Positions 16,875 through 31,235 of a DNA stretch of 64,000 nt are shown one piece after another (within the stretch, counting starts at the first letter, position 1; every line of letters starts with the position of its first letter). Location of the stretch: assembly GCF_010731775.1 (NCBI RefSeq), contig NZ_AP022590.1, forward strand, positions 4,340,001 to 4,404,000, read 5' to 3'. The translations under genes and the position numbers were made by a program. Source of the DNA: Mycobacterium mantenii. GTDB taxonomy: Bacteria; Actinomycetota; Actinomycetes; Mycobacteriales; Mycobacteriaceae. The notes below the pieces were generated by a model. The model was not told the DNA's origin. It was given only the letters and a program-made list of their open reading frames with translations, and searched no databases.

Positions 16875-19800
16875 ATGTCTTCGGTCCGGGTAGTCAGGAC
16901 GCCTTTCACGCCGGTCGCGGTCATCGGCATGGCGTGCCGACTGCCCGGTGGCATCGACTCTCCAGAACAGTTGTGGGACGCGCTGCTGCGCGGCGCTGAC
17001 CTGGTCACCGAAATCCCACCCGAGCGGTGGGACGCCGAGGAGTACTACGACCCGCAGGCTGGTGTGCCCGGCCGGTCGGTGTGTAAGTGGGGCGCGTTCC
17101 TCGATGACGTGGCGGGCTTCGATTCCGAGTTCTTCGGTATCACCGAAAAAGAAGCGACCGCGATGGATCCTCAGCATCGCTTGCTGCTGGAAGTTTCGTG
17201 GGAGGCCATGGAGCACGGGGGCCTCACCCGGCATACGCTGGCCGGCTCGCGGACCGGCGTGTTCATGGGATTGATGCACGACGACTACCAGTTCGTGCAC
17301 GCCGACGCCAACGCGCTGGACGGGCCCTACGGATACATGGGCAACAGCTTCGCCATGGGCTCCGGGCGGATCGCCTACACGATGGGGCTGCGCGGCCCGG
17401 CGATGACGGTGGACACCGCGTGCTCGTCAGGACTAGCCGCAGTGCATCTGGCCTGCCGAAGCTTGCAGGACGGCGAGAGCGACATCGCCCTGGCGGGCGG
17501 CGCCTCGGTATCCCTCGAACCGCGCAAATCCTGTTCGGGTTCCGCCATCGGAATGCTGTCCGCGACCGGACGCTGCCATGCGTTCGATGTCGCCGCCGAC
17601 GGGTTCGTGGCCGGCGAGGGGTGCGTCGTGCTGATGCTCAAGCGACTACCGGATGCGATCGACGCCGGCGACCGGATCTTGGCGGTGCTGCGCGGCACGG
17701 CTGCCAACCAAGACGGCCACACGGTGAATATCGTGACGCCGTCACGGGCCGCGCAAGTCGAGGCCTATCGCGCGGCGTTGGCCGCGGCGGGCGTCGACCC
17801 CCGCACCGTCGGCATGGTGGAGGCGCACGGTCCCGGAACCCCGGTCGGCGATCCGATCGAGTACGCCAGCCTGGCAGAGGTGTACGGCCTCGACGGGCCG
17901 TGCGCGCTGGCATCGGTGAAGACCAACTTCGGGCACACCCAGTCGGCCGCCGGGGCGCTGGGTCTGATGAAGGCGATCCTCGCGCTGCAACACGGTGTGG
18001 TTCCGCGCAACCTGCACTTCACCCGGCTGCCCGACGAGATGGCCCAAATTGAAACCAATCTGTTTGTGCCGCAGGAGAATACGCCGTGGCCCCGGAACGG
18101 TCACCGCGGCCCGCGGCGCGCCGCGGTGTCGTCATACGGCTTCTCGGGCACCAACGTGCACACGATCGTCGAGCAGGCCCCCGAGACGGCGGCACCGGTT
18201 GACGCGCCCAACACTCCGGCGATCGGCTGCCCCCTGCTTTTCCCGCTGTCGGCGACGTCGGCCGACGGACTGCGGCAAACCGCCGGGCGGCTCGCCGCCT
18301 GGATCGGCGCGCACGCGCAGGGGCCGGCGGCGGCGGATGTGGCGTACACCCTTACTCGCCGCCGTGCGCACCGCCCGGTGCGCACGACGGTCATCGCCGG
18401 CAGCCTCACGGAGCTCACCGAAGGCCTGCGCGGAATTGCGGCGGACGACTTCCCGTACCAGTCCGCGGTCGGACAGGACGATCGAGGACCGGTGTGGCTG
18501 TTCTCCGGGCAGGGTTCGCAGTGGGCGGCGATGGGTGCCGAGCTGCTCGCGACTGAACCGGTGTTCGCCGCGACCGTCGCCGAGGCGGAACCCCTGATCG
18601 CCCGGGAGTCCGGATTCTCGGTGACCGAAGCGATTTCGGGGCCCGAGACGGTGACCGGGATCGATCGCATTCAGCCCGCGCTGTTCACGATGCAGGTCGC
18701 GCTGGCCGCCACGATGAGGTCCTACGGGGTGCGGCCCGGGGCCGTGATCGGTCACTCGATGGGCGAGGCCGCCGCCGCGGTCGTGGCGGGCGCGCTGTCG
18801 CTGGAGGACGGCGTGCGGGTGATCTGCCGCCGCTCACGACTGATGTCCACGATCGCCGGCTCCGGCGCCATGGCATCGGTGGAATTGCCGGCCGAGCAAG
18901 TGCTTCTGGAACTGATGGCCCGCGGTGTCGAGGACGTCGTGCTCGCGGTGGTCGCCTCGCCCCGGTCCACGGTGGTCGGCGGCGCCACGCAGGCCGTGCG
19001 CGACCTGGTCACCGCGTGGGAGCAACGGGACGTGCCGGCCCGCGAAATCGCCGTTGACGTCGCGTCGCACTCCCCGCAGGTGGATCCAATCCTCGACGAG
19101 CTGTCCGACGTGCTCGCAGAGCTCAACCCCATGACACCTGAGGTGCGCTTCTACTCCGCGACCGCATTCGACCCGCGCGAGCAGCCCGTGTGCGATGCCT
19201 GGTACTGGTCGGACAATCTGCGTCACATGGTGCGTTTCGCCGCGGCAGTGCAGGCGGCGCAGGAGGACGGCCACCGGGTATTCGCGGAATTGGCCCCGCA
19301 TCCCCTCCTCACCCACGCCGTGGAGCAGACTGCCGGCAGCCTCGGCATGCCGCTGGCCGCACTCGCCGCCATGCGCCGCGAGCAAGCCCTGCCGCATGGA
19401 CTGCGAGGCTTTCTTACCGAACTGTTCAGTGCCGGTGCTGCGATCGACTTTTCCGCGATCTCCCCCGGCGGTCGGCTGGTGGATGCGCCGCTTCCGGCGT
19501 GGAACCACCGCCCCCTGCTGCTGACCCGCGGCGGCGACGATTCGCGGGCACGCGGCGCTTGGGCAGTTCCGGTGCACCCCCTGATGGGCGCCCATGTGCG
19601 ACTGCACGAGGTGCCGGAGCGCCACGTTTGGCAGGGCGAGGTCGGTACCGCGGCTCAGCCCTGGCTGGTCGATCACCGGATCCACAACGTGGCCGCGCTT
19701 CCAGGAGCGGCCTACTGCGAGATGGCGTGGGAAGCCGCCCGCACCGTCCTGGGCGAGAAGTCCGAGGTCCGCGACATCAGCTTCGAGGCGATGCTGTTGC

Positions 19801-30425: not shown

Positions 30426-31235
30426 ATGGAACGCCTCATCGACCGGTTGAATCGCAACCCAATCTCTCTGGCGCTGTTGAATTTGCGTTTTAAATACGGG
30501 TACCGGCTTCTCAGCCGCCTGCTCACTAGGGACGACGTGTTGTTCCTGAATTACGGGTACGAAGAGGATCCGCCGATGTCCTTGCCGCTGACGGCGGCCG
30601 ATGAGGCCGATCGGTTTCCCATTCAGCTCTACCATCGGACGGCCACGCAGGTGGACCTCGCAGGCAAGGACGTGCTCGAGGTCAGTTGTGGCCACGGTGG
30701 CGGCGCTGCGTATCTGACGCGGACCCTGCATCCGGCGTCCTACACGGGACTGGATCTCAACACGGTCGGCATCAAATTCTGCCGCAAGAGGCACAACCTG
30801 CCCGGTCTGACCTTCGTGCCTGGCAACGCCGAGAGCCTGCCCTTTCCCGAACAGTCCTTCGACGCGGTGATCAATGTCGAAGCCGCGATCAACTACCAAA
30901 ATGTCCCCAAGTTCTTCGCCGAAGTAAAACGCGTCCTGCGCCCGAGCGGGCACTTTCTTTATGCCGACATCCGCTACGCCGACGAAATCGATGCGTGGGA
31001 GGCGGACCTGGCCAACATCCCGATGCGGCTGGTGTCCGAACGGATCATCAATGCGGAGGTGATGCGGGGGCTGGAGAAGAATCGGTTTCTCGACCAGATC
31101 ACGCGCCGGCTGCCGAATATCGGACTGTTGCGCGGCATAGCCGATGACTACGCGGGAGGGCGGGGCTCGCTGATCTACCGCCGTCTGGAAAACGGCGAGG
31201 CTTCCTACCGGCTGTTCTGCTTTGCCAGGGACTGA
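30426..31235 (+). CDS. Rv2952/Fmt-like O-methyltransferase
   Basis: A 269-residue SAM methyltransferase closely resembling Rv2952 (phthiotriol and phenolphthiotriol dimycocerosate O-methyltransferase) and the GPL fatty-acid methyltransferase Fmt. Shared stretches are NYGYEEDPPM, LYHRTATQVDLAGKDVLEVS, GHGGGAAYLTRTLHPASYTG and NAESLPFPEQSFDAVINVEA. It probably methylates a hydroxyl on the lipid or sugar part of the product. ATG 30426 is chosen by similarity to the family start. It is divergent from fadD with only 76 bp between start codons, so both promoters share that gap. Confidence 0.87.
   Translation: MERLIDRLNRNPISLALLNLRFKYGYRLLSRLLTRDDVLFLNYGYEEDPPMSLPLTAADEADRFPIQLYHRTATQVDLAGKDVLEVSCGHGGGAAYLTRTLHPASYTGLDLNTVGIKFCRKRHNLPGLTFVPGNAESLPFPEQSFDAVINVEAAINYQNVPKFFAEVKRVLRPSGHFLYADIRYADEIDAWEADLANIPMRLVSERIINAEVMRGLEKNRFLDQITRRLPNIGLLRGIADDYAGGRGSLIYRRLENGEASYRLFCFARD

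What the first reader, a model, noticed from the sequence alone, without database searches (positions are those of the whole stretch)
16875..31235. Candidate biosynthetic locus for an undescribed methyl-branched surface glycolipid beside oriC
Eight adjacent genes form a coherent set: FAAL starter activation (28622-30349), Mas-like methylmalonyl PKS (16875-23273), PapA transfer (23284-24750), two different glycosyltransferases (24750-26024, 26672-27715), two methyltransferases (27712-28566, 30426-31235) and a Gap export protein (26024-26755). The mix borrows parts seen in glycopeptidolipid (Gap, GT1, Fmt-like), phenolic glycolipid/PDIM (Mas, Rv2952-like) and lipooligosaccharide (RgpF, Pap, FAAL) loci, yet has no NRPS, no Pks15/PpsA-E and no MmpL. 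It sits between tRNA-Ala and cwsA, which are neighbours in M. tuberculosis. The predicted product is an O-methylated, glycosylated, multi-methyl-branched acyl glycolipid. Gene identities are read from motifs; the product is inference.
Basis: partly seen in the sequence, partly recalled or inferred. Interest (0 to 1): 0.85.

Follow-up and report, generated by a model that had tools for sequence, protein, structure and literature searches.

The report
Relocated lipooligosaccharide-type gene island, Mycobacterium
Next to the replication origin of a Mycobacterium related to the M. avium complex sits an 18-kb inserted island of genes for a sugar-decorated, branched-fat surface lipid; it looks like a cut-down, moved version of a known mycobacterial lipid locus (lipooligosaccharide), which predicts a surface lipid that I did not find reported for this group.

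Summary
The eight genes are real and at the stated places. They are not a mixture from GPL, PGL and LOS loci: all eight have homologues in LOS-type (pks5/fadD25/mmpL12) loci of other mycobacteria, three of nine such loci read hold all eight, and for PapA, GT1 and RgpF these are the closest non-island matches seen. The unit is larger than reported: an 18.1-kb insertion (16485-34603) starting 2 bp after tRNA-Ala, which also carries a 1089-residue cyclase/AAA ATPase. Three close relatives have an empty site. Thirteen sampled genomes carry it (M. colombiense E1334, M. vulneris, M. scrofulaceum E3039, unnamed species) in one gene order. Aligned copies show no internal stops; dN/dS is 0.11-0.30. The island tree conflicts with the flanking genes, unevenly from gene to gene, which points to exchange between species. 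It has no MmpL12, the exporter that M. marinum LOS needs. Best reading: a condensed, relocated LOS-type cluster for an acylated, probably trehalose-based, short-glycan lipid; the chemistry is inferred. GPL-type NRPS genes lie elsewhere in the genome. New variant of a known kind.

The parts
16187..16261 (+). tRNA-Ile (flank)
   Evidence: ARAGORN, Rfam
16409..16482 (+). tRNA-Ala (TGC); insertion site, homology to empty sites ends at 16484
16485..34603 (.). island of 18,119 bp absent from close relatives
   Evidence: empty-site comparison with L086, L087, L089
16875..23273 (+). Pks5/Mas-type iterative PKS (KS-AT-DH-ER-KR-ACP)
   Evidence: Pfam/NCBIfam; solved Mas 2852 bits; motifs; trees
23284..24750 (+). 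PapA-type acyltransferase, DHLHCDP motif
   Evidence: (PapA2 464 bits)
24750..26024 (+). GT1-type glycosyltransferase, closest non-island copies in LOS-type loci (64-70%)
26024..26755 (+). Gap/Sap family membrane protein (SfLAP)
26672..27715 (-). RgpF-family glycosyltransferase
   Evidence: Pfam PF05045; distribution
27712..28566 (-). optional SAM methyltransferase MT1; paired with RgpF in LOS-type loci too
28622..30349 (-). fatty acyl-AMP ligase (FadD23/25/28 type)
30426..31235 (+). SAM methyltransferase MT2 (phthiotriol-methyltransferase/Mtf2 family)
31272..34541 (+). class III nucleotide cyclase-AAA ATPase fusion, found with the island in 13 of 13 genomes
34572..35162 (-). TetR regulator: first gene beyond the island (flank, present at empty sites)

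Best explanation
An 18.1-kb genomic island, inserted just behind tRNA-Ala next to the origin, carries a condensed lipooligosaccharide-type (LOS-type) glycolipid cluster. Proposed route: the FAAL activates a fatty acid and loads the Pks5-type iterative PKS, which extends it with methylmalonyl units into a multi-methyl-branched acyl chain. PapA moves that chain to a hydroxyl of a sugar acceptor, probably trehalose. GT1 adds one hexose and the RgpF-family enzyme another sugar, probably rhamnose. MT2, and MT1 where present, O-methylate. Gap assists export, with an MmpL encoded elsewhere or none. The cyclase/ATPase gene is a likely regulator or passenger. Shown: gene set, intact frames and motifs, homology to LOS-type loci, empty site, conserved order, tree conflict. 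Inferred: every chemical step, the trehalose acceptor, sugar identities, export route, regulation.
For: All eight proteins have homologues in LOS-type loci. Nine such stretches were read: PKS, PapA and GT1 in 9 of 9, FAAL 7 of 9, Gap 6 of 9, RgpF 5 of 9, MT1 4 of 9, MT2 4 of 9; three (G134, G029, G105) hold all eight. RgpF occurs in 24 of 248 genus genomes: 9 with the island, 15 without, and in 11 of those 15 it lies within 45 kb of an LOS-type PapA on the same contig. GT1: the copies in four LOS-type loci are 64-70% identical, other GT1 genes of the same seven genomes (those near this genome's GPL-type NRPS included) at most 59%. MT1 and RgpF are adjacent and on one strand in 4 of 4 LOS-type loci that have MT1, as here. 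Island KS-AT, PapA, FAAL, GT1 and MT2 each form one clade (support 95-100) among LOS-type homologues; with more paralogues added, the PKS falls with LOS-type PKSs and apart from the two rows I read as Mas. Empty sites. 13 genomes carry it. No internal stop in the aligned copies of 12 loci; dN/dS 0.11-0.30. KS, AT, KR and ACP motifs present. Flank tree and island tree disagree on the window genome, AU p 6.7e-6.
Against: The MmpL12-type gene present in 8 of 9 LOS-type stretches is absent from the island; the best match in this genome is 51% identical and lies beside another PapA. The second GT1 and the GT2 genes of fuller LOS-type loci are missing. A locus of the same genome at 1.72-1.73 Mb has a PKS (68%) and FAAL (66%) about as close as the LOS-type ones; in trees they fall just outside the LOS-plus-island group (support 86 for KS-AT, 66/90 for FAAL). 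Gap is only 35-47% identical to LOS-type copies, 39% to that locus's and 34% to the TPP-type one, and was not compared with a GPL Gap; MT2 was not compared outside these loci. Product, acceptor and sugars are untested. Naming the comparison loci 'LOS' rests on gene content, on a published gene table and on recalled M. tuberculosis order; none is from a genome that I could name. Per-gene trees do not all agree on exchange: FAAL puts the window with the M. colombiense type (61/93; 86/88 with more rows), Gap and MT2 lean elsewhere too, GT1 is unresolved. NCBIfam's best names point elsewhere: Pks2 (sulfolipid) and phthiotriol methyltransferase. No integrase and no tRNA repeat mark the island.
Confidence: 0.66

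Rival explanations
1. A distinct glycolipid class that reuses LOS-type enzymes on another acceptor (for example an acylated glycoside or a lipid already made by the cell such as a GPL or lipopeptide core), so the product is not an LOS.
For: No MmpL12, one GT1 (two in some LOS-type loci), an RgpF enzyme of unknown acceptor, and GPL-type NRPS genes elsewhere in the genome. MT2 is closest to one branch only of LOS-locus methyltransferases.
Against: All eight genes, including the MT1-RgpF pair, have homologues in LOS-type loci; the only solved relative of PapA found is the trehalose-2-sulfate acyltransferase PapA2.
Confidence: 0.2
2. A plain acyl-trehalose (DAT/PAT-like) locus with accessory sugar enzymes.
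For: Mas-type PKS, FAAL, PapA and Gap-type gene also occur together in acyltrehalose loci (family knowledge, recalled); the genome's own PapA-MmpL-FAAL-Gap-PKS locus at 2.549-2.567 Mb shows that grouping.
Against: That locus is 31-58% identical to the island genes, LOS-type ones mostly more (PapA 47 against 57-62%, FAAL 58 against 61-69%, PKS 31-38 against 61-72%; Gap 34 against 35-47%); two glycosyltransferases are conserved in 13 of 13 genomes.
Confidence: 0.07
3. A decayed, non-functional fragment of an LOS locus.
For: Several LOS-locus genes, including the exporter, are missing.
Against: No stops in the aligned copies of the eight genes common to 12 loci, dN/dS 0.11-0.30 in the pairs computed, catalytic motifs kept, order kept in 12 of 12 loci.
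Confidence: 0.05

Closest known systems
Lipooligosaccharide (LOS) loci of M. marinum, M. kansasii, M. canettii, M. riyadhense (pks5/papA/fadD25/mmpL12 region)
   Same: PKS, acyltransferase, acyl-activating enzyme, GT-B and further glycosyltransferases, as in the gene table for M. marinum/M. kansasii in PMC4403928 (passages); in LOS-type loci read here also Gap, RgpF and both methyltransferases
   Different: M. marinum cluster has at least 38 ORFs (PMC4403928) and needs MmpL12 (PMC12507525, abstract and passages); the island has eight such genes, no MmpL, sits behind tRNA-Ala beside oriC and ends in a cyclase gene
M. smegmatis LOS gene island MSMEG_4727-4737
   Same: compact (11 genes, or nine genes of about 17 kb), includes a Mas-like PKS, MSMEG_4727 (PMC11139207, PMC8125055; passages)
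   Different: no sequence comparison was made here; the passages that I saw do not mention a tRNA insertion site or RgpF
Trehalose polyphleate-type locus (same genome, 2.549-2.567 Mb; label recalled)
   Same: PKS, PapA, FAAL, Gap-type gene
   Different: has its own MmpL; proteins 31-58% identical; no GT1 or RgpF match in that stretch
GPL loci
   Same: Gap-family protein (recalled for GPL loci); a GPL-type NRPS pair near tandem MmpL genes exists elsewhere in this genome, with GT1 genes at 709-720 kb
   Different: island has no NRPS; its GT1 is 64-70% identical to LOS-type copies and at most 59% to the others; GPL Gap not compared

Membership tests
mycobacterial LOS biosynthesis locus | Pks5-type Mas-like PKS | tested here: met
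   61-72% identical (by aligned piece) to PKSs of LOS-type loci, same clade; another PKS of this genome is 68%
mycobacterial LOS biosynthesis locus | PapA acyltransferase of the LOS type next to the PKS | tested here: met
   57-62% identical, adjacent in 9 of 9 LOS-type stretches and here
mycobacterial LOS biosynthesis locus | FadD25-type FAAL | tested here: met
   61-69% to LOS-locus FAALs, 58% to the TPP-type one, 66% to the one at 1.72 Mb
mycobacterial LOS biosynthesis locus | glycosyltransferases for the oligosaccharide | tested here: met
   one GT1 and one RgpF, closest non-island matches in LOS-type loci; fewer than in fuller loci
mycobacterial LOS biosynthesis locus | MmpL12 exporter | tested here: not met
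   none in the island; best in genome 51% beside another PapA; so I file it as an LOS-type variant, not as the LOS locus
mycobacterial LOS biosynthesis locus | canonical chromosomal place (pks5 locus) | tested here: not met
   behind tRNA-Ala near gyrA; the other three PapA matches in the genome are 38-47%
mycobacterial LOS biosynthesis locus | acylated trehalose oligosaccharide product | not testable with these tools
   needs lipid chemistry
GPL locus | NRPS (Mps1/Mps2 type) | tested here: not met
   no NRPS among the island ORFs scanned; an NRPS pair is elsewhere
PDIM/PGL locus | PpsA-E/Pks15-1 and Mas | tested here: not met
   only one PKS; it groups apart from the two PKSs that lie near multi-PKS arrays, read as Mas by position
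tRNA-targeted integrative element | insertion at tRNA 3' end with empty site in relatives | tested here: met
   homology ends at 16484 and resumes at 34604 in 3 relatives
tRNA-targeted integrative element | integrase and direct repeat of the tRNA 3' end | tested here: not met
   no repeat in 8 of 8 island genomes with the tRNA in view; no integrase among the island ORFs scanned

The most novel reading that the evidence does not exclude
A mobile or formerly mobile LOS-type island moves between M. avium-complex relatives at tRNA-Ala beside oriC, and makes a short, O-methylated LOS-type lipid that is exported without MmpL12, coexists with GPLs, and may be part of the glycolipids of M. colombiense-group strains that have so far been called GPL-like from TLC alone. 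The co-inherited cyclase/ATPase would couple it to a signal.
Probability: 0.27. Interest if true: 0.65.

Novelty: new variant of a known kind. Interest (0 to 1): 0.45.

Why it matters
M. avium-complex bacteria are classically described by their glycopeptidolipids (recalled; GPLs are also the subject of PMC4477443, passages). My literature searches found, in their listings, no report of LOS or of this locus in M. colombiense, M. scrofulaceum or the complex; the library is open-licence only. If the island makes an LOS-type lipid, surface-lipid assignments in these species need rechecking. It also gives a natural test of whether LOS-type lipids can be exported without MmpL12, and shows that such a surface locus can sit in a tRNA insertion hot spot and be exchanged between species.

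Tried and rejected
Mosaic of GPL, PGL and LOS parts: rejected, because all eight genes recur in LOS-type loci and the GT1 is closer to those than to other GT1 genes. Hidden MmpL just downstream: rejected, since 31272-34541 is a cyclase/AAA protein. Direct repeats of tRNA-Ala as island ends: searched in the window and 12 loci, none found beyond the tRNA itself; two loci (L040, L041) lack the left end. Simple vertical inheritance: the label 'island' needs 5 changes on the flank tree (2 by starred branches only) and the island tree conflicts with it, but a shuffle test does not separate the label from random scatter (104 of 500 as low) and per-gene trees are mixed, so the direction and number of transfers are left open. 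Synonymous distances did not decide it: window against M. colombiense E1334, island 0.35-0.50, gyrA end 0.18, a piece of the P450 flank 0.53. Export through the TPP-type MmpL as a rule: weakened, since G103 has only a 33% match and G129 none at the cut-off. MmpLs of 55-58% in G238 and G036 were not followed up. RgpF has no solved relative by sequence. Two DUF3566 searches failed, so gyrA was used to find close relatives. A literature search with several species names returned nothing useful. No structure prediction was run.
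Full report
What is there. Sequence searches of solved structures give the PKS 2852 bits against mycocerosic acid synthase, the FAAL 755 bits against FadD23, and PapA 464 bits against PapA2. The + genes PKS-PapA-GT1-Gap are spaced by 10 bp or overlap; FAAL-MT1-RgpF run on the - strand toward them, and Gap and RgpF overlap by 84 bp tail to tail.

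Intactness. Wherever that part is readable in the window and the island loci, the PKS motifs DTACSSG, GHSMGE, VASHS/TPQV, YAAANxWLD and GLDSM are present; the ER motif that I looked for was not found in one (L061). The KS reads EAHGPGT, where some LOS-type PKSs read EAHGTGT: EAHGPGT in 15 of 15 island rows with that part readable (10 distinct genomes) and in 3 of 7 LOS-type rows. The AT motifs GHSMGE and VASHSPQVDPILD are the same in the solved Mas aligned. PapA keeps DHxHCDP in all 20 island rows (13 genomes).

Where it occurs. With PapA as query, 68 of 248 genus genomes match at E <= 1e-150 (at most six candidates scored per genome). Nine (this genome and eight others) are 77-100% identical; then comes a gap, and 29 genomes at 55-62%. 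In 12 of 12 loci that reach from the PKS (partial in two) to the cyclase the order is PKS-PapA-GT1-Gap-RgpF-(MT1)-FAAL-MT2-cyclase. The thirteenth, G059, is split between two contigs inside FAAL; its second piece reads FAAL-MT2-cyclase-TetR-P450-ppiA. MT1 is present in 3 of 13: window, G103, G129.

The island and its ends. Relatives chosen mainly by gyrA identity were read downstream of gyrA: 20 stretches, none with a match to a cluster gene, although L101 is only 700 bp and no genes were matched in L099 beyond the tRNA. In L086, L087 and L089 the TetR gene follows tRNA-Ala within about 40 bp. Alignment shows homology ending at window 16484, two bases after tRNA-Ala, and resuming at 34604. So the inserted segment is 16485-34603, 18,119 bp, including the cyclase/AAA gene. 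tRNA-Ala stands just left of the PKS in 8 of 9 genomes with more than 1 kb in view on that side; the exception, L056, has other ORFs and no tRNA in the 3.6 kb left of the PKS. No second copy of the tRNA end marks the right side. Two other genomes have different inserts at the same tRNA, each with a 47-bp copy of the tRNA-Ala 3' end on the far side (L092, L098); the one in L098 holds a phage-type integrase gene (L127). The site is therefore a used insertion hot spot, although I found no mobility genes in this island. G+C of the island is 0.652 against 0.658 for the window; the 390 bp between tRNA-Ala and the PKS are 0.592.

The ninth gene. The cyclase/AAA protein belongs to a large mycobacterial family (142 of 248 genomes match at E <= 1e-200; at most three candidates scored per genome). 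Copies at 79% or more were found only in 8 of the 9 island genomes; G059, the ninth, has 70-71%, and the next best genome 67%. It lies directly after MT2 in 13 of 13 island genomes. I count it as part of the island; its role is unknown.

Kinship of the genes. Nine stretches around PapA homologues of 57-62% were read (20 to 60 kb each, so absences are soft). They contain PKS, PapA and GT1 in 9 of 9, FAAL in 7, Gap in 6, RgpF in 5, MT1 in 4, MT2 in 4, and an MmpL12-type gene in 8. Three (G134, G029, G105) contain all eight island genes plus MmpL12. MT1 and RgpF are neighbours on one strand in 4 of 4. I call these LOS-type loci because PKS, acyl-activating enzyme, MmpL, GT-B, further glycosyltransferases and acyltransferase form the published LOS gene table of M. 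marinum and M. kansasii (PMC4403928, passages) and because the order in L045 equals fadD25-mmpL12-Rv1523-Rv1524-wbbL2-Rv1526c-papA-pks5 as I recall it for M. tuberculosis. RgpF is a good marker: 24 of 248 genomes, 9 with the island, 15 without; in 11 of these 15 it lies within 45 kb of an LOS-type PapA on the same contig; in two it is on another contig and in two no such PapA was listed. In seven genomes searched with GT1, the LOS-type copies are 64-70% identical and every other non-island GT1 at most 59%, including this genome's copies at 709-720 kb near its GPL-type genes. Trees of KS-AT, PapA, FAAL, GT1 and MT2 each join the island copies into one clade (support 95-100) among the LOS-type copies. 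Adding paralogues from five genomes, the island KS-AT stays with LOS-type PKSs (support 86-90) and apart from L135 and L140, which lie near multi-PKS arrays and which I read as Mas (quick trees, with a long-branch warning for one far row). Against a clean picture: the PKS (68%) and FAAL (66%) of another locus of this genome at 1.72-1.73 Mb are about as close as LOS-type ones and fall just outside them in the trees, and Gap is only 35-47% identical to LOS-type copies, 39% and 34% to two other copies in this genome.

Exchange between species. A tree of five right-flank proteins puts this genome with G247 and G233 (no island) and with G061, G103 and G129 (island) (99*), away from G036, G080, G238 and G001. 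The concatenated island proteins put it with G036, G080, G238, G001 and L056 (100/100); forcing it to the other side costs 42.6 log units, AU p 6.7e-6. The signal is uneven: PKS and PapA support it (96-98), RgpF and the cyclase lean the same way (64-74 bootstrap), FAAL puts it with G061 and M. vulneris (61/93; 86/88 with more rows), Gap and MT2 lean to other members (50/93, 67/89), GT1 is unresolved. I read this as exchange with recombination inside the island; number and direction are open.

Export. The LOS-type MmpL12 from L046 finds in this genome at best 51% identity, beside the PapA at 2.559 Mb; the four LOS-type genomes searched have 57-100%, the 100% being the query's own. Of eight island genomes searched, G238 and G036 have MmpLs at 55-58% on other contigs, whose context I did not read; G080 has 52%, this genome 51%, G061 and G001 (partial) 50%; G103 33%; G129 none at the cut-off. 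M. marinum needs MmpL12 for LOS transport (PMC12507525, abstract and passages). How the island product leaves the cell is open; Gap is the only export-type gene that I see in the island.

Other lipids in the same genome. NRPS ORFs of 3486 and 2563 residues lie at 754-764 kb, some 6 kb from tandem MmpL genes at 742-748 kb, which is GPL-type architecture (recalled); similar NRPS pairs occur in G036, G080, G238 and G247 (a capped list). A PapA-MmpL-FAAL-Gap-PKS locus at 2.549-2.567 Mb looks TPP-type (label recalled). So the island product would coexist with others.

Literature. Searches for M. colombiense with glycolipid and polyketide synthase, LOS with M. scrofulaceum, LOS with the M. avium complex, LOS with horizontal transfer, genomic island and tRNA, and pks5/papA3 with the complex gave no report of this locus in the listings or the passages that I read; the library is open-licence only. 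M. colombiense smooth strains make glycolipids called GPL-like by TLC, without structures (PMC4477443, passages). M. smegmatis has a compact LOS gene island repressed by Lsr2 (PMC11139207, PMC8125055; passages), the nearest precedent for a short cluster. LOS-locus layout differs between species, for example M. riyadhense (PMC8356964, passages).

Verdict. A real, conserved, intact island for an LOS-type glycolipid, moved to tRNA-Ala beside oriC and lacking the usual exporter. It is a new variant of a known kind; the product is a prediction.

Noticed in passing
G000:C1:1,721,400-1,731,000 (L158) and 1,737,365-1,764,597: A second Mas-like PKS (68% to the island PKS) with FAAL (66%) and a Gap-type gene, next to NRPS ORFs of 4599 and 6597 residues: looks like a lipopeptide-type locus.
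   Followed up: partly
G000:C1:3,045,000-3,065,000 (L159): A third Mas-like PKS with a FAAL-type gene beside ATP-sulfurylase and APS-kinase genes, which may point to a sulfated lipid.
   Followed up: partly
L092 1659-3669; L098 1693-9860 (L127): Other inserts at the same tRNA-Ala in two genomes, each bounded by a 47-bp copy of the tRNA 3' end; the larger carries a phage-type integrase and a kinase gene.
   Followed up: partly
L056 1-3600: In one island genome no tRNA, DUF3566 or gyrA match lies in the 3.6 kb left of the PKS; other ORFs are there, one resembling an NYN-type nuclease by eye, suggesting a further insertion.
   Followed up: no
window 31272-34541: The cyclase domain reads VGMAQRM where class III cyclases usually have V-N-x-A-x-R (motif recalled), so its cyclase activity is doubtful (sequence).
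   Followed up: no
window 16875-23273 and 30426-31235: NCBIfam equivalog models over their cut-offs would name the PKS a sulfolipid Pks2 and MT2 a phthiotriol methyltransferase; both names look misleading here.
   Followed up: partly
window 35342-36556: P450-like protein just right of the island, also present at empty sites; best NCBIfam match is the P450-derived glycosyltransferase activator model, below its cut-off.
   Followed up: no
G000:C1:1,057,918-1,082,082 and 771,244-789,738: Very large NRPS ORFs of 10,452 and 8,249 residues in the same genome.
   Followed up: no
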